From positions 62,001 to 126,000 of IMG/VR virus record IMGVR_UViG_3300047476_000521: a stretch of DNA of 64,000 nt; one strand, written 5' to 3'. Made by a program: the position numbers and the translations under genes. Origin of the DNA: a virus. The notes beneath the pieces were generated by a model. That model worked only from the letters and a program-made list of their open reading frames with translations. It was not told the DNA's origin and made no database searches. Below are positions 3,099 through 63,025 of the stretch, piece after piece. The number at the start of each line of letters is the position of its first letter. Positions within the stretch are counted from its first letter, which is position 1.

Positions 3099-6000
3099 CC
3101 TTATTTGTTGGTAATTCCACAGTAAACACTTCTATAAATGCAAATACTGCTAGTATTTTTGCTAATAGTACTGCGACTGCTTTATTTGTTGCCGCTAATG
3201 GAACTGTCGGAGTCGGAACGTCTTCTACTGGTTCGGCTAGATTAAATGTAAACGGCAAAGTATCTGCTTCGCAACTGGGAACAGAAAGCGGTAATCTTTT
3301 AATAGATACTGCAGGTAATGCGGGTACAATTACTCTTGGTTCAAGTTTCTTAGTAATACCTTCTAATGGTAATATTGGTATTGCAACTACCTCACCTCGT
3401 AACAAACTATCAATAGGAACTATTACTTCAACATCAACAGCAACTCCAGATGTAATTGATATAGGAGGCACATACAACAGCAGTGCTGGCAGCGCACCAA
3501 AACTTCGTGTGTGGACTGACGGCTCTAGTCATTATGGTATTGGTGTTTCTACTAATCAGATGGAATTTACTACGCAAGCAGGCGGAGCTCAAGTTTGGTA
3601 TACTGATGGTACCGAAAAAATGCGTTTGTCTTCTAATGGTAATGTGCGTATAGGTTCCGCTACAGCATCAGTAAGGTTTACTGTTGGAGATGGCGGGGAT
3701 AATCAATCAGGTCCAGGAACAGCGCAGATTGTTCTAAATGGTGCAGGAACAACTCCTTCAGTAACAGGTAAACCTACTTTATTCCATAAAGCAAATATTG
3801 GTTTAGGTTTACACTCAGATTCAGCAATGTCATTTACTGTTGCTGGTGCGGCTTACACTGAAGCAATGAGAATCGCTTCAAGTGGTAGTATTACTGGATA
3901 TGTCGATATTCGTTCTCCTATCTTTTATGACAGTAATAATACAAGTTTTTATGTTGATGCTGCATCCGCTTCTAGATTTAGTTCAATATATTCAGATCAA
4001 TATAGAATATTGAACAGCGGCGTTTTCATTTGGCAGCATGATAGCGCAGCAGCTAATAATAAGTTTTGGGATACATACTCAGGAAGCGATGGTACATTAA
4101 ACTTTAGAACAGTCAATGATACATATACAGCGGCGGTAAATTGGTTAACTGTAACACGCACTGGTAATTCTCCTCAAGTCATATCACTTGGCGGAACTTA
4201 TACGGCAGCGGCAGGTTCTGTAAGATCACCACTCTTCTACGATAGCGACAATACTGGTTACTATATTGACGGCGCAGGAACGTCCGTTTTGAATGCTGCT
4301 ACTTTTGCAGGTTTACATACAATTGATAGTCTTGGTATTATTGCTAGAACCGGTGGTGGTAACTATGGTGTTCGAATTTATCCCGGCGGTGGAACATCGG
4401 CTGTCAATGCCGTTCTACAATTCACAAATGCTGCACAAAATGTACAATGGGGAACACTCAACTTTGATGGTACCGCTGGCAGCGTAGGTACAGATACCGC
4501 TGTTCCTTTTTATATTAGGTCAAATGCGTCTAATAGAATCACCCTTCTTAGCGGCGGCAACGTTGGTGTAGGAACAATTTCACCCTCGACAAATTTTCAA
4601 GTTGTTGGTACTAGTTGGCTTGGTGGTTCAACAAATACCCAATCTACGATTGCAATTTATAGTCAAAACGCAACTTCTGCTAGTATAGAAGCGTTTGATC
4701 CAACAAATTCTGCCACAAAACGTGATATAGGTATTTCTGCTTTTGGTGGTAACGTTGGAATAGGAACTCAAAGCCCGACTCAAAAATTGACAGTTAGTGG
4801 TACAGGAAACGCTACTGGCGATTTCAGAGCGCCTATTTTCTATGACAGTGACAATACTGCTTACTATATGAATCCTAACGATTGGTCGAATTTTGGTGGT
4901 CTCTACGTTGATTGGGGCGTCATAACTTTCCAGTCCACCAAGCACAAGCGTATCACATCAAACGATGGTGGTGGTAACTGGAACTTCCGTGCAGGTAACT
5001 ACATGGATGGTTCGCTAAAGTATATCAACAACAGTGCAAATAGTGGTGCTGCTACTATCTCATTCTCTGTAGATAGCTCCGATGGATACATTAGTTTTCT
5101 CACTGCACCGATTGGTGTTGCTGGAGCAAACGTTTCGTATACCGGAACAGCATATCTAGATCGATATGGTACCTTTGGAACAAGTAACGATTTCAGAGCG
5201 CCTATCTTTTATGATAGTAATAATACTGCTTATTATTCTGATCCTAATGGTACATCAGTATTAACTAGAGTATCGCTATGGTCCGGAACAACTTCTGCAT
5301 TACATATCAACGACGTTGCAGGAGCAGCATCCTACAACAATATCATGTCAGCAGCAAACGATGGTGGCACTAAACTTGTTGCATTCGTTAACGGTTCTAC
5401 AAGAAATACTGATGGTGGTAATAATGCTGTTGTTATAAGAAACGATGGAGGACCATTTGTTCTTGGTTCTACTTCGCAGATAACAACTGTTGCAGGTTCG
5501 TATGTAGGTATTCCCACTGATCTTATCATATCTGGTGGTGTTGACGCCATTCAATTTAATAATGCTACAAGCAACTATATCACTTGGAATACTGCTGGCG
5601 TTGCTGCTCCAACTTTTACTACTCGTTCTGCTGGAACCAAGTTAGTATTATATCCATCTCTTGCCGCTTCTGCTGCTGATTATGCTATTGGTATTGAGAA
5701 TAACACTTTATGGAATTCTGTAATTAATACTGGAGCGCAGTTCAAATGGTATGGCGGAACTACGCTCGCCCTAACCCTTTCTGGTGCTGGTTTGTTGACT
5801 ATTGTTAATAGTCAAATAGCCAATCTAGGATCCACTTCGCTTAATAGTTTTGCAACAGCAGCAACAGCTACAGAAGGTCAGTTAATTGCTAATTTCACTG
5901 GTCAAAACTCTGCTTATCTATTCAATAACTCTACATTCTGGGGATTATATTCTGGTTCTGGCGGAGGCATTATTGCTTGGGATAGAGGTAATACTAGAGT

Positions 6001-7543
6001 CAACATAGCAAGCGGTGGTGGATTTGCGCAAATAAGCGGTTCTGCAAGAGCACCAATCTTCTACGATTCTGATGATACTATTAGTCGTTGGACTAGTAAT
6101 GATTTTGTTCTTAGAGGAACATCGCCAACAATTTTCTTACGAGATACAGATCATAATTCAGCAATGATTCATTGTAATTCTAATTTGTTATACGTTCTTA
6201 GAGGCGGCGTTGATACAGAAACTTGGGCGCAAGTTAATTCTCAATGGCCTCTCACCATAAATCTCACAAACAACGATGCTGTTTTTGGTGGTACTCTTTC
6301 TTCTGTTGGTGCTGCATATTCTCCTATTTACTATGATAGGGATAATACTGCATATTATGTTAATGGCAATGGAACTTCTCTACTAAGTTCATTGTCTCTT
6401 CAAGATGTCGGTGGTCTATGGGCAAGAGCTGGTTATTCTGATGGATATCATGATATTACATTCCGTGGTTATCCATCAACATTTGGCGCTTTTCCTGCGA
6501 CAACTATTGCTGATGTTATGGCATTTAGTGATTGGGGTGGTGATTTCAGGTTCTATCATAAGACAAGCACTGTCTTAACACATTTAGCACACATCACGAC
6601 AGATTATCTATGGCATTATTCTAATATAAGAACACCTATCTTCTATGATAGCAACGATACAAATTATTATTTGAACCCCAATGGTGGTAGTCAAGTAGCA
6701 GGGCATTTTAGAATTGGACCATACGCAGGTTCTGCAACTACTGGTAATGTTACTGGCTTAGAAATTATGAACGCTGGTGGTACTGGCGATTCAAATCTTG
6801 CTGCTATTTCTTTTCACTGTCAGGGCACATATGGTGCTCATATGCATCTTCGTGCTGATGGAGTGTTTGGTATTGGTGGATGGTCAGCTTCTTCATATCG
6901 TTGGTATGTCGATTTACCAAACTCTATTACATATATGACCAACCAATCACGTTCTAATATACATTACGATCTTGATGATACAAACTATTATGTAGACCCT
7001 AACAGCACCACAAGACTAAACAATCTAACTGTTGTCGGAACAGGCAGTAAGACTCTTATTGCAACTCTTACAGCATCAAATTCTGCAACCCTTTCCACAA
7101 CAGCACTAAGCGGATATAGATATTATGAAATTATTTTCACAAATATCGTTCCTGTAACAACATCAACGAATCTAAGATTACAGTTTTATAGTAATGGTTC
7201 GTATCAAGCAGCAAATTATCTAAACTATCTTGCTGTGTTCAACACAGGAGGTTCAACAGCAGGAGCGTCCACAACTTATGTTGATCTTTCAGCAGGTAAC
7301 AGAGTTTCTAATACAGCAAGTAATGGATTTACGGGTACAGTTTTATTGACAAACGCTAACCAAGCAACTGGTTTCAAACAATACATAGTCGATTCCGGAG
7401 GTTTAGATTCAAGCACTGCAGGATATTGTAGATGTTGGGGTACAGGTTCTTTGAATGTTACTACAACGATTACAGGTCTTCAGGTCTATATGTCATCTGG
7501 TAATATTTCAACTGGCGTTATTCAAATTTGGGGATGGAACTAA
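3095..7543 (+). CDS. Giant tail fibre protein with FYDSxNTxYY repeats
   Basis: 1482 residues, translationally coupled to the preceding fibre through ATGA. About eight copies of a motif like PIFYDSDNTAYYMNPN are spread through the protein, plus a few NVGIGT-type repeats shared with the upstream fibre. Both repeat types are known from long phage fibres, where they form modular beta shafts. The last about 150 residues lose the repeats and look like a globular beta domain. No S74 chaperone signature is visible at its end. Probable receptor-binding long tail fibre; exact T4 equivalence cannot be assigned. Confidence 0.85.
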   Translation: MTLFVGNSTVNTSINANTASIFANSTATALFVAANGTVGVGTSSTGSARLNVNGKVSASQLGTESGNLLIDTAGNAGTITLGSSFLVIPSNGNIGIATTSPRNKLSIGTITSTSTATPDVIDIGGTYNSSAGSAPKLRVWTDGSSHYGIGVSTNQMEFTTQAGGAQVWYTDGTEKMRLSSNGNVRIGSATASVRFTVGDGGDNQSGPGTAQIVLNGAGTTPSVTGKPTLFHKANIGLGLHSDSAMSFTVAGAAYTEAMRIASSGSITGYVDIRSPIFYDSNNTSFYVDAASASRFSSIYSDQYRILNSGVFIWQHDSAAANNKFWDTYSGSDGTLNFRTVNDTYTAAVNWLTVTRTGNSPQVISLGGTYTAAAGSVRSPLFYDSDNTGYYIDGAGTSVLNAATFAGLHTIDSLGIIARTGGGNYGVRIYPGGGTSAVNAVLQFTNAAQNVQWGTLNFDGTAGSVGTDTAVPFYIRSNASNRITLLSGGNVGVGTISPSTNFQVVGTSWLGGSTNTQSTIAIYSQNATSASIEAFDPTNSATKRDIGISAFGGNVGIGTQSPTQKLTVSGTGNATGDFRAPIFYDSDNTAYYMNPNDWSNFGGLYVDWGVITFQSTKHKRITSNDGGGNWNFRAGNYMDGSLKYINNSANSGAATISFSVDSSDGYISFLTAPIGVAGANVSYTGTAYLDRYGTFGTSNDFRAPIFYDSNNTAYYSDPNGTSVLTRVSLWSGTTSALHINDVAGAASYNNIMSAANDGGTKLVAFVNGSTRNTDGGNNAVVIRNDGGPFVLGSTSQITTVAGSYVGIPTDLIISGGVDAIQFNNATSNYITWNTAGVAAPTFTTRSAGTKLVLYPSLAASAADYAIGIENNTLWNSVINTGAQFKWYGGTTLALTLSGAGLLTIVNSQIANLGSTSLNSFATAATATEGQLIANFTGQNSAYLFNNSTFWGLYSGSGGGIIAWDRGNTRVNIASGGGFAQISGSARAPIFYDSDDTISRWTSNDFVLRGTSPTIFLRDTDHNSAMIHCNSNLLYVLRGGVDTETWAQVNSQWPLTINLTNNDAVFGGTLSSVGAAYSPIYYDRDNTAYYVNGNGTSLLSSLSLQDVGGLWARAGYSDGYHDITFRGYPSTFGAFPATTIADVMAFSDWGGDFRFYHKTSTVLTHLAHITTDYLWHYSNIRTPIFYDSNDTNYYLNPNGGSQVAGHFRIGPYAGSATTGNVTGLEIMNAGGTGDSNLAAISFHCQGTYGAHMHLRADGVFGIGGWSASSYRWYVDLPNSITYMTNQSRSNIHYDLDDTNYYVDPNSTTRLNNLTVVGTGSKTLIATLTASNSATLSTTALSGYRYYEIIFTNIVPVTTSTNLRLQFYSNGSYQAANYLNYLAVFNTGGSTAGASTTYVDLSAGNRVSNTASNGFTGTVLLTNANQATGFKQYIVDSGGLDSSTAGYCRCWGTGSLNVTTTITGLQVYMSSGNISTGVIQIWGWN

Positions 7544-7989
7544 TGACACTCAATTATAAATCTAGAAACGATACTGAAGCTGTAGTTCGTCTAACCGATG
7601 GAGCAATCATCGGTCCTGAAAACGAAACAGAATGGGAAGAATATCAAACTTGGTTATCTGAAGGTAATACACCAGAAGAACCAGAATCAGAGTTACTTCC
7701 TGTTCCCTCGACAATATCAGATCGTCAGTTTTTTCAACAGGCAGCTATACTTGGTGTTATTTCACAAGCAGAAGCATTGGCCGCTGTTCAGACTGGCACA
7801 ATTCCAACAGTTCTTCAAAGTATTGTTGATGGAATACAAAATTCGTCTGAAAAGTTTGCAGCAACAATGTTGTTAGCAGGAGCAACAGTATTTGAGAGAA
7901 ATCATCCATTCACTAATGCTGTTGGCAACGCTTTAGGTTGGTCAACTCAACAGATTGATCAGTTTTTCATTGACGCAGCAAAGTTATAA
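7543..7989 (+). CDS. Hypothetical protein after tail fibre
   Basis: 148 residues if started at the ATG that overlaps the fibre stop (TAATG), preferred over the in-frame ATG 15 bp upstream because of the coupling. The N-terminal half is acidic, with a run ESELLPVPSTISDRQF, and the C-terminal half is alanine-rich and helical. Such small proteins directly after fibre genes are often fibre assembly helpers or minor virion proteins, but no family is recognised with certainty. Confidence 0.7.
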   Translation: MTLNYKSRNDTEAVVRLTDGAIIGPENETEWEEYQTWLSEGNTPEEPESELLPVPSTISDRQFFQQAAILGVISQAEALAAVQTGTIPTVLQSIVDGIQNSSEKFAATMLLAGATVFERNHPFTNAVGNALGWSTQQIDQFFIDAAKL

Positions 7990-52298: not shown

Positions 52299-52895
52299 TT
52301 AAGAATCCTTTTTCTTTCTTGCGGCTAACATTTTCTCTCTCCAAACAGGGTCTTTCCACAATTCTTTAATTTTTTCAGAATTTTTTCTCTTATGATCTTC
52401 TGTTTGTATTGCACCCTTTTTTGATTCTGATATTTTGTTTTTAGTTTCTTCGTCTCTGGATTTACCTAACCAATATTTACTAGGATTTTTCTTAGCAGCA
52501 ATTCTCATATTTTCTCTTGCTTTTTCAGAGGTAGTTGTTCCTTTTCTTGGGGGATTGGATTTACATCTTTCTGACACCCAAGGTTTAGGTTTTTTAGCAG
52601 AATCGCTCATTCTTTTTCTTGTAATAGAAGAAATATTGGAAATTCCTTCGCCGCCATCAGTCATATTTAACAGTGTGCCATTACCTATGTCTCTTCTTCC
52701 ATACCAATTAATATAAAATCTTTCTAAAGCAAAAGCTCCTATTTCTGTCAAATTTTTTTCCATTATAATAATTCTATTATGTTCTTTCGGTACAGGTATT
52801 TTACCATGTTTTTTATATGCTCTATTACCTGTTCCTTTACCTATATAATAGGGATTTCCATTTTTATTAGAAATATATGCGTATATGTAATACAT
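52299..52895 (-). CDS. GIY-YIG homing endonuclease with NUMOD3 repeats
   Basis: 198 residues. YYIYAYIS and [19 protein letters not shown] form the GIY-YIG core, with conserved Arg and Glu in [16 protein letters not shown]. The C-terminal half has NUMOD3-type DNA-binding repeats ([30 protein letters not shown]). Inserted between the two FmdB-like paralogues. Confidence 0.9.
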
Positions 52896-54078: not shown

Positions 54079-54936
54079 CTAAAAATCACTCAAACAGTCA
54101 GTAAGGTTTTTGAGTTTGTTTGCTATAAAATAATTTAGTAGTTTGCTACGATCGCGATTTGACTGTGCGTCAAACTGCTCCATAACCTTCTCACGAATGA
54201 AGTCAGGAGTAAAACTGAGATCGATTAGCTTTGCGTTACGAGAATAATTACGGGCAGTAACTGTATCCATATCTTCTAGATCAGTTCCCATAATCTTTTC
54301 CATCTTCTTTGCTGTCAGTGGTCTCTGGCGATCGCCAACAACAAAAACATTATCAGGGGAAAGGACGTTAGGAATGCCATCACCAGCATCTCCCTTTAGG
54401 ATATGTTCGTGAAGAAAACGTTCCGGATCCTCGTGAGAAACCCACTTCTTGCGGGTAGGATCATACTGTCTTACATTAGGATAAATGTGCAATTGAATGA
54501 AATCTTTATCGCCTGATAGAATGAGAATTTTCTCACCAGTATTTAGCTCTGAACTAAACTCAGTGACAAGAGTTGAGATGATATCGTCTGCTTCTGCAGC
54601 TTCAACATCAATAACTCGGTAAGGAAAATACTCCTTTAGTTCTGCGCGAATCTTGTTAAGGCATTCGAACAGAGCCTTCCAATCTAGCTCAGACTTTTCA
54701 AGGTTCTTCTTTCGGTTTGCCTTGTAATAAGGAAACACCTGCTTGCGCCAATAATTGGTGTTATCACAAGCAATAATCATTTCGCCATACTCGTCACCGA
54801 ACTTAACCTTATACGAACGGAGAGAGTTTAAGATCATATGGCGAACCATATTTTCTTCTAGCTGAGCGTTGGTATGGTTACCAAGCTGCATTAGAAGATT
54901 TGACAACATGACCTGATTCAAGTCAACAATAATCAC
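54079..54936 (-). CDS. rnh: Ribonuclease H (5'-3' exonuclease family)
   Basis: 285 residues. FEN-type active-site acids: DLNQ near the N-terminus, CDNTNYWR, AEADDIISTLV, SGDKDFIQL and KGDAGDGIPN. T4 RNase H (305 residues) removes lagging-strand RNA primers during replication; the same motif order is present. Ends 8 bp before the upstream gene's stop region. Confidence 0.92.
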   Translation of the reverse strand: MIIVDLNQVMLSNLLMQLGNHTNAQLEENMVRHMILNSLRSYKVKFGDEYGEMIIACDNTNYWRKQVFPYYKANRKKNLEKSELDWKALFECLNKIRAELKEYFPYRVIDVEAAEADDIISTLVTEFSSELNTGEKILILSGDKDFIQLHIYPNVRQYDPTRKKWVSHEDPERFLHEHILKGDAGDGIPNVLSPDNVFVVGDRQRPLTAKKMEKIMGTDLEDMDTVTARNYSRNAKLIDLSFTPDFIREKVMEQFDAQSNRDRSKLLNYFIANKLKNLTDCLSDF

Positions 54937-55371: not shown

Positions 55372-56361
55372 TTAGTTGTGATAGACCACACTAGATCCTA
55401 GTCCATAAAATTCGAAGTCGTAAATTCTACAGTCTTTGTGTAGATTAGAGATCGCCCAAGTTACTGACGATCTATGAATTTCTGGCACATAGAAAATAAA
55501 AAATCCTCCTCCGCCTGCTCCTAGAAGTTTACCTCCTAAAGCTCCAGAATCCATTGCTGTATTGTAGATTTCATCGAAATAGTCTTGCGTTATTTCTTCG
55601 CAAACACCTTTCTTATCTATCCATGATTCGTGTAGAAGTCTACCGAAATCGTCAATCTTTCCTTTATGGATCAGTTCTAATGCTTCGAAAGCCTTATCCT
55701 TAGACCTCTTGACTTTATTAAATTTGTCAACATCTACCATGGCTTTCTGTTGTTTCTGAAGAATGTTATTAGCGTTTCTACTTCTTCCAGAGTAAACCAA
55801 CAATAGATTTTTTTCTAAAGCCATTAAATTAGGATTGGTTAGTCTAACTTCTTCTACATCAACTTGACCGTTTTTTCTAAACTGAAAAAGATTAAACCCT
55901 CCATAAACGGCAGCGTATTGATCCTGTTTACCAACAGGATATCCGCAACGATTCATTTCTATTTCGCATGCAGTTTCTGCGAAATGACTTCGGGATCTTT
56001 CGTTGTTGTTAATTGTAGAGATAGCCTTAACAAGCCCAACTGTAAAAGCAGAAGAGCTACCAAGGCCAGAACCCTTAGTAACAATATCAGACATTGACGC
56101 AACCGTAATCTCCTTTGAAATATTGTAATACTTTAAAGTTTCTCTTGTGATTGCGTGTTGCATTTGTTCAATATCGTATTGTTCTTCAACTTCATCATAC
56201 ATGCAGCGTACGCCCATGTGAGGAACTTTGTGAGCCATTACGTAAATAAATTTATTGATAGTCACTGAAAGAGCGGCACCGTCTTCCTTTTCATAGAAAG
56301 ACGGCATATCGCTACCACCACTGAAGAAAGAAACACGTAGTGGAGTTTTTGTAATAATCAT
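55372..56361 (-). CDS. hddA: D-glycero-D-manno-heptose 7-phosphate kinase (HddA-like)
   Basis: 329 residues from ATG 56361, preferred over an upstream in-frame ATG that lies inside the preceding gene. GHMP kinase: KTPLRVSFFSGGSDMPSFY at the start, ATP-binding TKGSGLGSSSAF (97-106) and C-terminal KLLGAGGGGFFIFY. The FSGGSD.P.FY opening is characteristic of HddA, which phosphorylates heptose 7-phosphate at C1 for GDP-heptose synthesis. Last gene of the sugar operon. Confidence 0.87.
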   Translation of the reverse strand: MIITKTPLRVSFFSGGSDMPSFYEKEDGAALSVTINKFIYVMAHKVPHMGVRCMYDEVEEQYDIEQMQHAITRETLKYYNISKEITVASMSDIVTKGSGLGSSSAFTVGLVKAISTINNNERSRSHFAETACEIEMNRCGYPVGKQDQYAAVYGGFNLFQFRKNGQVDVEEVRLTNPNLMALEKNLLLVYSGRSRNANNILQKQQKAMVDVDKFNKVKRSKDKAFEALELIHKGKIDDFGRLLHESWIDKKGVCEEITQDYFDEIYNTAMDSGALGGKLLGAGGGGFFIFYVPEIHRSSVTWAISNLHKDCRIYDFEFYGLGSSVVYHN

Positions 56362-56362
56362 A

Positions 56363-57358
56363 TTACACCTTATATACGAACATTGGTTCAGGGAACTTTC
56401 TAGATTCAACAGTTGGATACTGTTGTAGGAGATCTCTTAAGACAGCATTCCATTTGTTATTAATGAACTCAATGTTAAATCTAGAATCAACGTATACCTT
56501 ATTGAAAGCTAACATACTCTTCTCGTTGTCTTCTCTAACAAGTTGAATAGCAGCGTTCAAATTACCAGCAAACAAAGAAGCATGAATAGTCTTGTCTTCC
56601 ATGTTACCATGGTACATAACATTTAATCCACCAGATGTTTCAGGTAAAGCTCCAAGATTAGGATGAACACAAACTAGTCTAGCAGACATAGCTTCAAGCA
56701 TAGCACGACAAGAAGTCTCAACCCAAATAGAAGGATATGCAAAGATATGAGCAGAGTTTAGATGCTCCTTCAACTTTTCGTTTGAAACAAATCCATGATA
56801 TGTCATTTGAGGATGATTACGAATCTTATCATATAATGGCTCAAACTGTTTATCTGCTTCATCCCAGCCATAAATCTTAAAAGAGGAAAATACGTCTAGA
56901 TGAATATCAGGTTGAGTCTCTGCCAACCTCTCGAATACAGGAACTAAAATCTCTAGCCCACGTTGAGGAGTTGATGTGTAAACTAACCGAATCTTATCCT
57001 TGGGCTTTTCTACCTCTGGAGCAGGTTCGATGCCTGACTCTAGGATAACTGACTTGTTATCCATGGGTAATCCATGGATAAGATTGTACCTCTGGTACTG
57101 CCAGTTTGAAATAAAAACAAACTTGTGATACTTATCTCGCCATTCAGTGTTACGGAACTTAGCAGACTCTGGGTCTTCTGGTAAATCGTGACACCAAAAT
57201 AATCTAATCTTAGATTCGTCTAACTGACGTTCGCGAGAACAGATAATTTGAAAATTATCTAGTAGATCCTGATCTAAAATCTCAGCTAGCTTTCTCTTTG
57301 CGATCTCTGTTCCGCCTTGAGCCTTTGATGAAATTTCGTTTTCTTCAAATCCCTTCAT
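56363..57358 (-). CDS. Family 4-type glycosyltransferase
   Basis: 331 residues, GT-B fold pattern: GGTEIAKRKLAEIL near the N-terminus, VYTSTPQRGLEILVPVFE as the start of the second domain, HGFVSNEKLKEHLNSAHIFAYPSIWVETSCRAMLEAMSA containing the EX7E-like motif for nucleotide-sugar binding. Sits between transaldolase and HddA, so its donor is plausibly the NDP-heptose made by the operon. Acceptor unknown. Confidence 0.85.
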   Translation of the reverse strand: MKGFEENEISSKAQGGTEIAKRKLAEILDQDLLDNFQIICSRERQLDESKIRLFWCHDLPEDPESAKFRNTEWRDKYHKFVFISNWQYQRYNLIHGLPMDNKSVILESGIEPAPEVEKPKDKIRLVYTSTPQRGLEILVPVFERLAETQPDIHLDVFSSFKIYGWDEADKQFEPLYDKIRNHPQMTYHGFVSNEKLKEHLNSAHIFAYPSIWVETSCRAMLEAMSARLVCVHPNLGALPETSGGLNVMYHGNMEDKTIHASLFAGNLNAAIQLVREDNEKSMLAFNKVYVDSRFNIEFINNKWNAVLRDLLQQYPTVESRKFPEPMFVYKV

Positions 57359-58104
57359 TATACTTCAATCCTGTATCCAGATGCAACAGCATCATTATAA
57401 AACATTTGAACTGTTTCTTGTGAAAACTCTTCTAAATCCTTGTTCTCTAGACTTAACTTTTTAATCTGATCATGAAGCATAGTAATAATGTTACAGCCAG
57501 AATGTTCAGCCATTCGTAGATGATAAAGTTCTCTACAAGAAGCCCAAAGAAACTTTACATTTTTTACATCGTTTTCTTCAAAACAATCCATTTCTTGAAC
57601 ACAACGTTTTGTTCTATCAACTGGATCTCGAAGAGTATCAGCAATACGTCCAGAGAAGATAGAAATAATTACTGGAACTTCGGGGTTGTTAATGCTTTCA
57701 AGAATTTTAAAGGTCTGTTGTGGCGTAAACACAGCGGTAACATTTACCTTCACACCCTCTTCGTTAAGCAAACGAATAAGACCGTAATTAGGTTCGCCCT
57801 TTGTATTCGTAACTGGAATTTTAACGAATACGTCATACTTATAAAACTCGCCCCACGAAGCAATCTTCTTTGCTTGCTCGTACATACTATTAGTATCATC
57901 AGCAAATACTTCTAGAGAAATATTAGTCCCTGGTCTCTTTTGCGCTAAAACACTAATAATATTATGAGCGAATTCCTCATAATCAGTAACACCAGCTTGC
58001 CTCATAAGAGTTGGATTAGTAGTAAATCCAGTAACAAGAGGATTCTCTGCCGCTTTTAAAATACCATTAAAATCAGCACCATCTGCATAAATTTCAATCG
58101 TCAT
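57358..58104 (-). CDS. talC: Transaldolase (TalC-type)
   Basis: 248 residues. Short-type transaldolase pattern IYADGADFNGILKAAENPLVTGFTTNPTLM, catalytic Lys 95 in DVFVKIPVTN, NVTAVFTPQQ, and ISIFSGRIAD. Such enzymes interconvert sedoheptulose 7-phosphate and fructose 6-phosphate. In cyanophages TalC feeds the pentose phosphate pathway; here the position in a heptose operon suggests making or balancing sedoheptulose 7-phosphate. Overlaps both neighbours by 1-4 bp. Confidence 0.9.
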   Translation of the reverse strand: MTIEIYADGADFNGILKAAENPLVTGFTTNPTLMRQAGVTDYEEFAHNIISVLAQKRPGTNISLEVFADDTNSMYEQAKKIASWGEFYKYDVFVKIPVTNTKGEPNYGLIRLLNEEGVKVNVTAVFTPQQTFKILESINNPEVPVIISIFSGRIADTLRDPVDRTKRCVQEMDCFEENDVKNVKFLWASCRELYHLRMAEHSGCNIITMLHDQIKKLSLENKDLEEFSQETVQMFYNDAVASGYRIEV

Positions 58105-58643
58105 TCGCCACCTACATTTTGTTGAATAATAATTACTGCCTCAAGAAGATTCTTGGCATAAAAGTCTGGTTTGATATGCATATACTCTTCAGGAGAAGAA
58201 TAGATATCTCCAAGGTATATAGTCGCGACCCCAGCCTTGTTACCAGCAACCACATCTTTCCAAGTATCACCAATCATCCAACTACGTTCTCTAGTAATCA
58301 TCCATTCTTTGATTACCTTATCAAGCATACCAGAATTAGGTTTGTATTCTGGTGTACCACGAGTTCTAGCTGCTTGAATAGTATCAACTTTTAAATCATT
58401 CTTGAGGCGTTGATGAATTACATTCATTGTTTCTTCAGTAGTATAACCATCATCAACATCAGGTTGATTGGTTACTACATGCAAAGTATAACCTAAACTA
58501 CGAAAACTAGCAATAGCTTGTTCTACGCCATCAATATATTCAAACTCTGAATAATACCAAGGACAAACATGTTTAGGATTATCCCTTCCATGAACCAATT
58601 CGTTGATTGTTCCATCTCGATCTAGGAAAATAGCTTTTACCAT
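58101..58643 (-). CDS. gmhB: D,D-heptose 1,7-bisphosphate phosphatase (GmhB-like)
   Basis: 180 residues. HAD motifs: FLDRDGTINELVHG (Asp 8, Asp 10), HVVTNQPDV, and MIGDTWKDVVAGNKAG. The DRDGT variant and overall length are typical of GmhB and histidinol-phosphatase type enzymes; the two neighbours make GmhB the better reading. Removes the C7 phosphate of heptose 1,7-bisphosphate. It lacks a full four-Cys zinc loop of bacterial GmhB in this reading. Confidence 0.85.
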   Translation of the reverse strand: MVKAIFLDRDGTINELVHGRDNPKHVCPWYYSEFEYIDGVEQAIASFRSLGYTLHVVTNQPDVDDGYTTEETMNVIHQRLKNDLKVDTIQAARTRGTPEYKPNSGMLDKVIKEWMITRERSWMIGDTWKDVVAGNKAGVATIYLGDIYSSPEEYMHIKPDFYAKNLLEAVIIIQQNVGGE

Positions 58644-59221
58644 TTTGTAGAATTCTTCTGTAAAACTGGATTAGAAACCAAGCAATGCCAAACTACTGCC
58701 TGAAATGCTTCTGAATGAGGCGTAACCCGAGCAGGATTTACCTCAGGAATATGAACAACCTGATGAGCCATCTGATGGGTATATCCGTTATTCTTACCAA
58801 CAATACCAAAGATATGAGCTCCAACATAATTGGCATAATCAATTGCCTTAACTAAGGCTACTGATACATTCTTTTCTTTGTTTCCACCACCAACGGAAAG
58901 AACAAAGATAGCATCATACTTATTAAGATTGCTAGTGCGTAGATATTCGTCGAAGATAGTATCAAAACCTTCATCATTTGTTCTAGCAGTAAGCTCTGGA
59001 ACATTATCTGTTGGACAATACGCTTCAATACCACATAGCTTTCTAAGATCGTTTACCATGTGAGAAGCATTACCAGCAGAACCACCAACTCCCAAAACAA
59101 AAACTCTACCTGCTCGAGCTCTAACTTCTGAAAGAGCTTCGGCTAGAATTTGAATCTTTCGAGTATCGATAGCCTGTGAAATAGTTGTTACTTCTTGAAA
59201 GAAATCGTCAGAGTGACTCAT
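58637..59221 (-). CDS. gmhA: Sedoheptulose 7-phosphate isomerase (GmhA-like)
   Basis: 194 residues, SIS domain: RVFVLGVGGSAGNASHMVNDLRKLCGI, DNVPELTARTNDEGFDTIFDEYLR and VSVGGGNKEKNVSVALVKAIDYA. The GSAGNASHMVNDL block matches GmhA-type isomerases, which convert sedoheptulose 7-phosphate to D-glycero-D-manno-heptose 7-phosphate. Overlaps gmhB by 7 bp. Confidence 0.87.
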   Translation of the reverse strand: MSHSDDFFQEVTTISQAIDTRKIQILAEALSEVRARAGRVFVLGVGGSAGNASHMVNDLRKLCGIEAYCPTDNVPELTARTNDEGFDTIFDEYLRTSNLNKYDAIFVLSVGGGNKEKNVSVALVKAIDYANYVGAHIFGIVGKNNGYTHQMAHQVVHIPEVNPARVTPHSEAFQAVVWHCLVSNPVLQKNSTKW

Positions 59222-59645
59222 TATGTTTAATCCTTTTTCTCAAACCACTTGAAGAATAATTATGTAATCTATCAATATAGATAATCTCAACGGATCTGTT
59301 TTCGCAGATGTCTTGACCGTTTAATGTTTGACCCTTATATTCTGATCCTATAAACCTTTTGTTTATATTAAGAATAGATAGCATATTACTTAGGTCTTCC
59401 TCAGTATCGTAAGGAATGATCTCATCTACGCATCTTAAAGCGTTTAACTGACACCAACGTTCGAACGTTGTCTGAACTGGTTTGTTTTTCTCTTTGGGCC
59501 TATTAATAGTAGGATCAGTTTGTAACCCTACTATCAACCAATTACATTGTTTCTTACATTGTTCTAGCATGGAAACATGACCTGCATGAAGCAGGTCAAA
59601 TGAGCCAAAAGTAATTCCTATTGAAAAATTATCCTCTGACAACAT
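59208..59645 (-). CDS. Sugar-phosphate nucleotidyltransferase (HldE-C/TagD type)
   Basis: 145 residues from ATG 59645 (GGAGG upstream). Cytidylyltransferase-like fold with GITFGSFDLLHAGHVSML (HxGH motif), GLQTDPTI, QTTFERWCQLNALRCVDEIIPYD and YSSSGLRKRI (ISSTxxR variant). In heptose pathways this fold is the HldE C-terminal domain that makes ADP-heptose; related TagD makes CDP-glycerol. The HddA neighbour points to the D,D-heptose branch, so the nucleotide is uncertain. Confidence 0.8.
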   Translation of the reverse strand: MLSEDNFSIGITFGSFDLLHAGHVSMLEQCKKQCNWLIVGLQTDPTINRPKEKNKPVQTTFERWCQLNALRCVDEIIPYDTEEDLSNMLSILNINKRFIGSEYKGQTLNGQDICENRSVEIIYIDRLHNYSSSGLRKRIKHNESL

Positions 59646-60456
59646 AATACATATTTCCTCCATCCCACTTATTAAGACCATCGCTTACTAAAGGAATCTT
59701 TTCTACGTTCTTGTCCATGAAGAAATTGTTGAAATAATCATCATTGACTTCTAAACCAAACACTGCTGACTGAGCAAGGACAAGCCAATTCTTAGACTTA
59801 TCGATCTTAGGCATTAAAACGTTTCTATATTCTACAGGAGTTTCTGACAAAGACCAAGTAGCAATAACTAGATCAGAATGAGTAGCAACGTCATCTTCGA
59901 ACGACCATTTAGGATTAATACCCTGCTTACTAAGATAAAATTCTTGGATTGGCTGCGTCTCTGGAATATCAACAATAGTATATTCGCCCTTAAATCCTAG
60001 AGCATGAACTACCGAACACATATCTCCATAACCAGCACCGATCTCAACAATTGACTTCATATCCTTTAACTTATCAGCAAAGCCAGTTATACAAAGATGA
60101 GCAATATCTTGGATACGCTGCATCGATGTATCAAAGTCAGAAGTGACACGAAGCATTGGTCTAATGTGATCTGGCGCTCCAATCCAATTTTCTTGGAGCG
60201 CCGTGGCAATTTGCTCATCTCGTGCAGCATGATAAAACGATTCGCCAACAAAGCGAGAAGTTCTATACTGAGTAATAAAAGGTACATTGTGACAAGAAGC
60301 CCATAGCCTAAAACGATTAAGCGGGAGTGTAGCGCAATCATGCTTAAACACTTCCCGCATCGTTGGCCAATACTCTGGCCCGTTTACGTTTTTAGCTTCT
60401 CGAGCTTTCACTGAAACTTCTGACATTGGATCAAAGTCAGACCATATTAAATCCAT
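59629..60456 (-). CDS. Putative sugar O-methyltransferase
   Basis: 275 residues, class I SAM methyltransferase fold: IVEIGAGYGDMCSVVHALG (motif I), EYTIVDIPETQPIQEFYL, and LVIATWSLSE as motif IV-like segment. The overall pattern resembles the putative sugar O-methyltransferase family found in bacterial polysaccharide clusters. First gene of the sugar block; overlaps the nucleotidyltransferase by 17 bp. Confidence 0.8.
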   Translation of the reverse strand: MDLIWSDFDPMSEVSVKAREAKNVNGPEYWPTMREVFKHDCATLPLNRFRLWASCHNVPFITQYRTSRFVGESFYHAARDEQIATALQENWIGAPDHIRPMLRVTSDFDTSMQRIQDIAHLCITGFADKLKDMKSIVEIGAGYGDMCSVVHALGFKGEYTIVDIPETQPIQEFYLSKQGINPKWSFEDDVATHSDLVIATWSLSETPVEYRNVLMPKIDKSKNWLVLAQSAVFGLEVNDDYFNNFFMDKNVEKIPLVSDGLNKWDGGNMYYVVRG

Positions 60457-60470
60457 AATAAACTCCTATA

Positions 60471-60833
60471 TTAAGCTTGTCTAGTTAGAAGCGTAGAATC
60501 AATATTCTTTGCTTCGAAAAATGTTCTAACTAGATGAAGAACTGTCTTCTCGTTAAAAGGCTTGCAAGAAAAGACGTCGAGGTAAATATCATCAGTTTCG
60601 TTAACGAAGTGTGCGCAAATATTGCTTGTTTCGATTAATTGAACAAGAGTGTAACCTGCTTTGTTTCCTGAACCAAAGTTCACAATCTGTGGTTCGCCAT
60701 AAGCAACCATATCGATATCTCTGACTAACTGTTTAGTAAACTCATGAATTACACCATAGTTAGTAATCATTTCGTGATTACACCCGCTTGCATTAACAAT
60801 AAGATGATAACCCCAATAAGTCTTTTCGCTCAT
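60471..60833 (-). CDS. speD: S-adenosylmethionine decarboxylase (SpeD)
   Basis: 120 residues, class 1B size. Cleavage and pyruvoyl-forming Ser 70 in IETSNICAHF, catalytic His 75, and catalytic Cys 90 in LDVFSCKPF; the usual TPE block is replaced by VNETDDIY. Makes decarboxylated SAM for spermidine synthesis; known from marine T4-like phages. RBS AGGAGACA. Confidence 0.88.
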   Translation of the reverse strand: MSEKTYWGYHLIVNASGCNHEMITNYGVIHEFTKQLVRDIDMVAYGEPQIVNFGSGNKAGYTLVQLIETSNICAHFVNETDDIYLDVFSCKPFNEKTVLHLVRTFFEAKNIDSTLLTRQA

Positions 60834-62320: not shown

Positions 62321-63025
62321 TTACTTGGTCTTTATATATGATGCTTTGATCTTGCTCTTTTCAAGAATTTCGAAGCCATTAGGGAATAGATAAGTCTGTT
62401 CTACGATCTCGTCATGATCATACATCCAAATATCATCAAACACATGAACTGATCCAACTGGAGCACGCTTGACAAAGAAGTCGCACTCTAGATGTAAGGC
62501 TCCATTATCATGAGGACCATCAAAAAATACGAAAGCGTATTCGTTTTCTAGCTTCTTATAATCATCATATACCGGAACGCCATCACCATAACGATTGAAA
62601 AACTCTGAATCTTCTAGACAGAAAAAGGAGAAGTTCAAACCAGCATTATATGCATAGAAATATAGAGAAGGAATAATACGGTTACGCATTGTATTATCAT
62701 AATCAAAACGCTGGGGCGAAGTAATCTCCTTTGACATCTTATCGCCTTCGATCTGACGTTCTGGGTTATGAATTGACATGTTAAGATTAGTGCATTCAAT
62801 CTCGATGTTACCATATGGATCAATACAGAACATAGAACGATTGTTGTTGCCTGTCTGAACAAGCGTATCAATAATCAACTTAGCAGAACCACCACGACGA
62901 GTGCCAATCTCAACGATGGCGCCAGGAACTTCTTGCTTGACAGCAGCTGCTGCTCTTACTAAGATTTCATACTCCTGAGAATCTGTACCAAAAACTTCTT
63001 CATCACTAAAACGAATAATTGCCAT
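62321..63025 (-). CDS. SAM-dependent methyltransferase (class I)
   Basis: 234 residues. VPGAIVEIGTRRGGSAKLIIDTL is motif I of a Methyltransf_24 or macrocin-type O-methyltransferase, FCIDPYG follows, and FVFFDGPHDNGALHLECDFFV is the metal or acceptor-side motif. Probable small-molecule or sugar O-methyltransferase. RBS AGGAG. Confidence 0.8.
   Translation of the reverse strand: MAIIRFSDEEVFGTDSQEYEILVRAAAAVKQEVPGAIVEIGTRRGGSAKLIIDTLVQTGNNNRSMFCIDPYGNIEIECTNLNMSIHNPERQIEGDKMSKEITSPQRFDYDNTMRNRIIPSLYFYAYNAGLNFSFFCLEDSEFFNRYGDGVPVYDDYKKLENEYAFVFFDGPHDNGALHLECDFFVKRAPVGSVHVFDDIWMYDHDEIVEQTYLFPNGFEILEKSKIKASYIKTK

What the first reader, a model, noticed from the sequence alone, without database searches (positions are those of the whole stretch)
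55372..60456. Near-complete NDP-heptose pathway in one phage operon
Seven adjacent, overlapping genes encode transaldolase (sedoheptulose 7-phosphate supply), GmhA isomerase, HddA kinase, GmhB phosphatase, a nucleotidyltransferase, a glycosyltransferase and a sugar O-methyltransferase. Every step from a pentose-phosphate intermediate to a transferred NDP-heptose has a candidate. Single heptose genes occur in marine phages, but a contiguous set with its own glycosyltransferase and methyltransferase is striking.
Basis: partly seen in the sequence, partly recalled or inferred. Interest (0 to 1): 0.8.

Follow-up and report, generated by a model that had tools for sequence, protein, structure and literature searches.

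The report
Phage operon making an activated rare sugar
A group of T4-like viruses of bacteria carries a conserved set of genes that should build a rare seven- or eight-carbon sugar from basic cell metabolites, activate it and attach it to something, so the sugar supply seems to be part of how these viruses work rather than a stray host gene.

Summary
Seven tightly packed minus-strand genes (55372-60456) encode the families named. The six-gene core NT-isomerase-HAD-transaldolase-GT4-GHMP kinase keeps its order in 34 of 36 non-redundant, fully spanned related phage contigs, under purifying selection. The methyltransferase is optional.

The set is a complete route from sugar phosphates to an activated aldose, but "heptose" is not established. 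Every enzyme scores far below curated heptose cut-offs. The isomerase belongs to a separate clade (100/100), shared with bacterial polysaccharide clusters, that travels with the transaldolase in 37 of 41 bacterial loci. Known heptose pathways need no dedicated transaldolase. The characterised pathway using exactly these five enzyme types is the lincomycin octose (C8) pathway, and the bacterial clusters also carry LmbL/LmbM/LmbZ-like genes. I slightly favour NDP-octose over NDP-heptose; chemistry must decide.

The phage version is a hybrid: a standalone TagD/HldC-type nucleotidyltransferase replaces the HddC-type enzyme of the bacterial clusters. The glycosyltransferase has homologues at the same genomic slot in other T4-like phages lacking this pathway. 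The acceptor is unknown; no hydroxymethylase gene for T4-type DNA glucosylation was found.

The parts
59629..60456 (-). MT275, putative sugar O-methyltransferase (NanM-type, class I SAM); optional decoration gene
   Evidence: TIGR04371 45.2 bits over 55 residues only, cut-off 44; no Pfam hit. A MT275 homologue is detected in 15 of 36 spanned phage loci.
59208..59681 (-). NT, HxGH nucleotidyltransferase of the HldE-C / HldC / TagD superfamily; proposed to make the NDP-sugar
   Evidence: CTP_transf_like; rfaE_dom_II 86.5 bits; phrog_7878; AlphaFold pLDDT 90.5, Foldseek nearest GCT 1coz/2b7l and HldC 5xf2.
58637..59221 (-). GmhA*, SIS_2 ketose-phosphate isomerase of a separate subfamily (motif NDLRK, TPxxEx7H)
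   Evidence: SIS_2; gmhA 40 bits of 209; model nearest to GmhA structures; one clade with bacterial GmhA*, 100/100.
58101..58643 (-). HAD-IIIA phosphatase, GmhB/LmbK-like position in the pathway
   Evidence: PRK08942 83 bits of 178; PDB E. coli GmhB best; DxD motif in 46 of 46 phage copies.
57358..58104 (-). TAL, transaldolase of the TIGR02134 type; proposed first committed step
   Evidence: TIGR02134 258 bits of 282; Schiff-base Lys motif KxP in 49 of 49 phage copies; only about 31% identical to cyanophage TalC.
56363..57358 (-). GT4 glycosyltransferase; proposed transferase of the sugar
   Evidence: Glycos_transf_1; phrog_2170; the only PF00534 match found in this genome; homologues in the same slot in other T4-like phages.
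55372..56361 (-). GHMP sugar-phosphate anomeric kinase, HddA/WcbL-like
   Evidence: NF049969 158 bits of 600; PDB WcbL 4usm 6e-39, HddA 3k85 and 4n3o.
60471..60833 (-). AdoMet decarboxylase, conserved upstream neighbour, not assigned to the pathway
   Evidence: PF02675; synteny.
54079..54936 (-). T4-type RNase H, conserved downstream flank that anchors the locus

Best explanation
A lineage-conserved operon of T4-like phages builds its own nucleotide-activated higher sugar, most likely an octose. Proposed route: TAL moves a C3 unit from fructose 6-phosphate (or sedoheptulose 7-phosphate) to ribose 5-phosphate, giving octulose 8-phosphate; GmhA* isomerises it to octose 8-phosphate; the GHMP kinase phosphorylates C1; the HAD enzyme removes the C8 phosphate; NT makes NDP-octose; GT4 transfers the sugar to an acceptor; methyltransferases, which vary between phages, decorate it. 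Shown: families, gene order, conservation, catalytic motifs, the partnership of GmhA* with TAL, and the match of the enzyme set to the lincomycin pathway. Inferred: every reaction, the chain length, the nucleotide and the acceptor. The broader claim, a TAL-fed NDP-aldose pathway of either chain length, I hold at about 0.85. The acceptor is probably a host envelope glycan or a phage component, with no evidence to choose.
For: 34 of 36 spanned non-redundant phage loci keep NT-GmhA*-HAD-TAL-GT4-HddA in order with near-zero spacing; dN/dS mostly 0.04-0.2 for core genes, with dS near saturation. GmhA* of phages and bacteria is one clade at 100/100, phages nested inside. TAL lies beside GmhA* in 37 of 41 bacterial loci against 5 of 14 loci with other GmhA types. 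The lincomycin pathway has the same five enzymes: LmbR transaldolase (F6P or S7P donor, R5P acceptor), LmbN isomerase, LmbP kinase, LmbK phosphatase, LmbO nucleotidyltransferase (PMC5854111, PMC4351081, PMC7014725). Bacterial GmhA* clusters also carry NDP-sugar dehydrogenase, epimerase and Gfo/Idh genes in the roles of LmbL, LmbM and LmbZ (PMC12945683); two phage variants keep an SDR and a Gfo/Idh gene beside TAL.
Against: No LmbN, LmbR or LmbP sequence could be reached, so the link to lincomycin is by enzyme set and not by tested orthology. TAL makes S7P just as well. Some GmhA* clusters of Pelagibacterales use an NT-PfkB fusion that matches HldE, which speaks for heptose there. Another GmhA group in Pelagibacterales also has TAL. 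The phage kinase does not group with the kinases of the bacterial TAL clusters in the best tree, though that grouping is not rejected (p-AU 0.27). The phage GT4 shows no significant sequence similarity to any solved GT, LmbT included.
Confidence: 0.48

Rival explanations
1. One reading: TAL supplies sedoheptulose 7-phosphate, and GmhA*, HddA-like kinase, GmhB-like phosphatase and NT make NDP-D-glycero-manno-heptose, which GT4 transfers.
For: Nearest named families and structures of kinase, isomerase, phosphatase and NT are heptose enzymes. Viral heptose enzymes that make ADP-heptose are experimentally known (PMC11573728). HldE-like fusions sit in some bacterial GmhA* clusters.
Against: All scores are far under curated cut-offs; GmhA* is a separate clade; the TAL partnership is unexplained, since S7P is a normal metabolite; GHMP kinase (alpha route, normally with HddC) is paired with an NT of the beta/ADP type.
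Confidence: 0.38
2. The sugar decorates phage DNA as in T4 (hydroxymethylcytosine glycosylation) and so protects it from host nucleases. This concerns the acceptor and can be true with either chain length.
For: GT4 and replication genes (RNase H, PhoH) lie in one block. GT4 homologues are conserved at this slot across T4-like phages with different or no sugar genes, which suggests a phage-borne or otherwise constant acceptor.
Against: No thymidylate-synthase-family (hydroxymethylase) gene in this genome or in 8 relatives, although records may be incomplete.
Confidence: 0.12
3. The pathway remodels the host envelope polysaccharide, for example to block superinfection. This concerns the acceptor and can be true with either chain length.
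For: The homologous bacterial modules sit in surface-polysaccharide clusters. Variable methyltransferases resemble O-antigen-type diversification.
Against: No flippase, polymerase, acetylase or membrane protein is in the cassette; an invariant GT4 is unexpected if host glycans differ between hosts.
Confidence: 0.45
4. The transaldolase is a flux gene like cyanophage talC, unrelated to the other genes.
For: Cyanophages carry talC.
Against: It is locked inside the operon in 36 of 36 spanned loci, is of the TIGR02134 type and not TalC, and the same TAL-GmhA* pairing exists in bacteria.
Confidence: 0.04

Closest known systems
Lincomycin/celesticetin octose pathway (LmbR, N, P, K, O)
   Same: Same five enzyme types: transaldolase, SIS isomerase, GHMP kinase, HAD phosphatase, nucleotidyltransferase; bacterial relatives of the phage cassette also have LmbL/LmbM/LmbZ-type genes.
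   Different: In phages and surface-glycan loci, not an antibiotic cluster; NT is TagD/HldC-type and not a guanylyltransferase of the LmbO/HddC kind; no aminotransferase; GT not similar to LmbT by sequence; orthology not testable here.
GDP-D-glycero-alpha-D-manno-heptose pathway (GmhA, HddA, GmhB, HddC)
   Same: Kinase nearest to HddA/WcbL; isomerase and phosphatase folds.
   Different: Dedicated TAL; isomerase of a separate clade; no HddC.
[quoted passage not shown]
   Same: NT resembles HldE-C/HldC.
   Different: GHMP kinase in place of PfkB-type HldA; NT has an aromatic residue where the STTR5 motif has Arg.
Caulobacter phage Cr30 and Synechococcus phage SynMITS9220M01 heptose-type genes
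   Same: GT next to HddA next to a GmhA; Cr30 shares the grx-GT4-HddA neighbourhood and a related NT elsewhere.
   Different: Other GmhA type, no TAL in the group, no HAD gene annotated, not a complete operon.
Bacterial GmhA*-TAL polysaccharide modules (Pelagibacterales, Rhizobium plasmids, Verrucomicrobiota, Firestonebacteria)
   Same: GmhA*, HAD, TAL, HddA-type kinase in one cluster; the phage GmhA* nests among theirs.
   Different: They use HddC-type or NT-PfkB enzymes; none of 80 loci has a standalone phage-type NT.

Membership tests
Lincomycin-type octose pathway | Dedicated transaldolase next to the other genes | tested here: met
   TIGR02134-type TAL in 36 of 36 spanned phage loci.
Lincomycin-type octose pathway | SIS isomerase, GHMP kinase, HAD phosphatase, nucleotidyltransferase in the same operon | tested here: met
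Lincomycin-type octose pathway | Isomerase, kinase and TAL orthologous to LmbN, LmbP and LmbR | not testable with these tools
Lincomycin-type octose pathway | HddC/LmbO-type guanylyltransferase | tested here: not met
   Phage NT is HxGH cytidylyltransferase-like.
GDP-heptose pathway | HddC guanylyltransferase | tested here: not met
   Absent from the cassette; found in the bacterial modules. HddC-like hits among phage records only in unverified faecal contigs.
GDP-heptose pathway | HddA above the curated cut-off | tested here: not met
   158 bits against 600, though HddA/WcbL are the nearest solved structures.
ADP-heptose pathway | PfkB-type heptose 7-phosphate kinase | tested here: not met
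   Kinase is GHMP.
ADP-heptose pathway | STTR5 motif (F/L)xxGRSTT, the hallmark of NTP-promiscuous heptose nucleotidyltransferases (PMC11573728) | tested here: not met
   Phage NT has R-x-H-x-[Y/W/F]-S-[S/T]-[S/T] in 49 of 50 sequences; this bears on NTP promiscuity only.
Canonical GmhA | gmhA equivalog score and canonical clade | tested here: not met
   40 bits of 209; separate clade 100/100; catalytic His kept, Glu65 equivalent is Asp.
T4-type DNA glycosylation | Hydroxymethylase of the PF00303 family | tested here: not met
   None in own genome or 8 related records, which may be fragments.

The most novel reading that the evidence does not exclude
T4-like phages encode a complete de novo NDP-octose (C8) pathway of the lincomycin type, with its own transferase, and with a CTP/ATP-type nucleotidyltransferase in place of the guanylyltransferase: an activated sugar not known from viruses. 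The same C8 module would then be widespread in bacterial envelope glycans of Pelagibacterales, rhizobia and Verrucomicrobiota.
Probability: 0.42. Interest if true: 0.8.

Novelty: new variant of a known kind. Interest (0 to 1): 0.62.

Why it matters
Phages usually carry one or two auxiliary metabolic genes. Here a whole sugar-building route, kept in order across a broad phage lineage, implies that the sugar itself matters for infection. If the product is an octose, it links a chemistry characterised in the lincomycin and celesticetin antibiotics to environmental T4-like phages and to surface-glycan clusters of SAR11, rhizobia and Verrucomicrobiota, and it warns that many genes annotated as heptose biosynthesis may be misnamed. 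Both points can be tested with six small enzymes.

Tried and rejected
Nucleotide comparison of the whole cassette with known phages gave only a short Cr30 match. PHROGs added little. Melnitz, the closest known phage by RNase H, has no such annotated genes around RNase H and PhoH or in the rest of the genome that I read (its first 22.7 kb were not read). Faecal 'Bacteriophage sp.' records with HddA-like genes look like bacterial DNA (L004) and were set aside. A first AU test on the kinase tree used a badly drawn group (it included second kinases of TAL loci); I repeated it with the TAL-type clade, where p-AU was 0.27; that group was chosen after seeing the tree. dN/dS values for PhoH and for NT against L020 were artefacts of ORF picking and are not used. 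Strict motif patterns undercounted HAD and TAL; one search corrects them. Papers: no report of such a phage operon was found in the open library, which does not cover subscription journals.
Full report
What is there. The window is bases 62001-126000 of a 136,102-base virus record of a T4-like myovirus with 27 tRNA genes and T4-type RNase H and PhoH. On the minus strand, between AdoMet decarboxylase/glutaredoxin and RNase H, lie seven close-packed genes: methyltransferase, nucleotidyltransferase (NT), SIS isomerase, HAD-IIIA phosphatase, transaldolase (TAL), GT4 glycosyltransferase, GHMP kinase. HMM searches confirm each family. PDB searches place the kinase with WcbL/HddA (6e-39, next families 3e-11), the phosphatase with E. 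coli GmhB, the isomerase weakly with GmhA, and the NT with TagD and HldC. The NT model (pLDDT 90.5) is nearest to glycerol-3-phosphate cytidylyltransferase and B. pseudomallei HldC; the isomerase model (pLDDT 84.6) to GmhA.

Conservation. Scans of IMG/VR with the kinase and the isomerase gave 38 loci and 147 confirmed relatives (80 kept). Of 58 non-redundant loci with the isomerase, 36 span the whole region. In 34 of these the core NT-isomerase-HAD-TAL-GT4-kinase is complete and in order, usually with spacings between -11 and +29 bases; 7 have a gene of about 550 bases, where checked a methyltransferase, between NT and isomerase, and 4 have extra genes between TAL and GT4. A MT275 homologue is detected in 15 of the 36, a second methyltransferase between or beside NT and isomerase in 8. 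Core genes show dN/dS of roughly 0.04-0.2, with dS near saturation. Catalytic motifs hold: TAL lysine motif in 49 of 49, HAD DxD in 46 of 46, isomerase NDLRK/NDFRK and TPxxEx7H in 48 of 48. This is a functional unit whose methyltransferases vary.

Is the sugar heptose? Every enzyme falls far under the curated heptose cut-offs. The isomerase (GmhA*) has Asp where E. coli GmhA has the catalytic Glu65, a six-residue deletion and a four-residue insertion near the C-terminal catalytic His (residue roles from memory of the GmhA literature). I collected 80 bacterial loci from Pelagibacterales, other Pseudomonadota, Verrucomicrobiota and Firestonebacteria. GmhA* of phages and bacteria forms one clade with 100/100 support against all other GmhA proteins, the phage copies nested inside. 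In bacteria GmhA* has TAL nearby in 37 of 41 loci; other GmhA types in 5 of 14 (Fisher p 1.5e-4, not corrected for relatedness). The usual bacterial set is HddA + HddC + GmhA* + HAD + TAL, often with NDP-sugar dehydrogenase, SDR and Gfo/Idh genes, also on Rhizobium plasmids. A distinct isomerase that travels with a transaldolase suggests that the transaldolase makes the isomerase's substrate.

Precedent. In lincomycin biosynthesis LmbR, a transaldolase, joins a C3 unit of F6P or S7P to ribose 5-phosphate; LmbN isomerises octulose 8-phosphate; LmbP is the kinase, LmbK the phosphatase, LmbO the guanylyltransferase; LmbM, LmbL and LmbZ act on GDP-octose (PMC5854111, PMC4351081, PMC7014725, PMC12945683). 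That is the enzyme set found here, and the bacterial modules even carry the LmbL/LmbM/LmbZ kinds. To my knowledge the characterised heptose pathways (ADP- and GDP-heptose) have no dedicated transaldolase. I therefore favour an octose, but only slightly: no Lmb sequence was reachable, TAL also makes S7P, some GmhA* clusters have an HldE-like NT-PfkB fusion, and a second GmhA group of Pelagibacterales also has TAL.

A hybrid. None of the 80 bacterial loci has a standalone NT of the phage type; they have HddC or NT-PfkB. The phages have HddA-type kinase plus TagD/HldC-type NT. The NT lacks the STTR5 arginine described for promiscuous heptose nucleotidyltransferases (PMC11573728) and has Tyr, Trp or Phe there in 49 of 50. 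The phage kinases are one clade; in the best tree they stand apart from kinases of bacterial TAL clusters, but joining them is not rejected (p-AU 0.27, group chosen after seeing the tree). GT4 homologues sit between glutaredoxin and RNase H in Sinorhizobium phage phiM12 and Rhizobium phage RHph_I1_18, and next to glutaredoxin in Stenotrophomonas phage DLP6; in Cr30 GT4 lies near glutaredoxin together with an epimerase, HddA and GmhA. So the operon seems assembled from parts: an older phage GT4, a phage-type NT, a kinase lineage of its own, and GmhA* (probably with TAL and HAD) from a bacterial polysaccharide module. Two phage variants keep the SDR and Gfo/Idh genes of that module.

What it does. 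Most likely the phage makes and transfers an unusual, often methylated sugar. T4-type hydroxymethylcytosine glycosylation is not supported by gene content (no PF00303 in this genome or 8 relatives). Host envelope, virion protein or a differently prepared DNA base all remain open; the constancy of GT4 across phage groups hints at a constant acceptor.

Known or new. Viral heptose enzymes are known, and some make ADP-heptose (PMC11573728). Cr30 and SynMITS9220M01 carry partial sets. A complete, ordered, TAL-fed pathway with its transferase, fixed across a phage lineage, was not found in the open literature searched. I rate it a new variant of a known kind.

Noticed in passing
L036:5592-7965; L127:8299-10055: Phage contigs with an SDR and a Gfo/Idh oxidoreductase inserted beside TAL (in L036 also a further methyltransferase), homologous to genes in the bacterial GmhA*-TAL modules.
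   Followed up: partly
L058:3239-4774: Pelagibacteraceae gene with reversed HldE domain order (NT first, PfkB kinase second) next to GmhA*-HAD-TAL.
   Followed up: partly
L137, L138, L139: GT4 homologue next to or near glutaredoxin in T4-like phages phiM12, RHph_I1_18 (here upstream of RNase H) and DLP6, with different neighbours; DLP6 has a sialyltransferase-like (GT29) gene, an annotated nucleotide-diphospho-sugar transferase and a methyltransferase there.
   Followed up: partly
window 52299-52895 and G000 5397-6005, 7183-7695, 131464-132084: ORFs that look like homing endonucleases (GIY-YIG-like and HNH-like) scattered through the genome.
   Followed up: no
window 62321-63025: TylF/Methyltransf_24-like methyltransferase upstream of the cassette, present in only part of the related phages; possibly another decoration gene.
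   Followed up: no
L004 (MT835644.1): A 'Bacteriophage sp.' record from faeces that carries a GC-rich sugar-nucleotide cluster (HAD-GmhA fusion ORF, GT, epimerase, NTP transferase, HddA) and looks like bacterial chromosome.
   Followed up: no
L018:10-560, L027:4835-5657: TAL (L018) and MT275 (L026, L027) split between frames in single contigs: sequencing error or decay.
   Followed up: no
Melnitz phage MZ577096.1 50731-56876: The related Methylophilales phage carries a curli (type VIII secretion) gene set.
   Followed up: no
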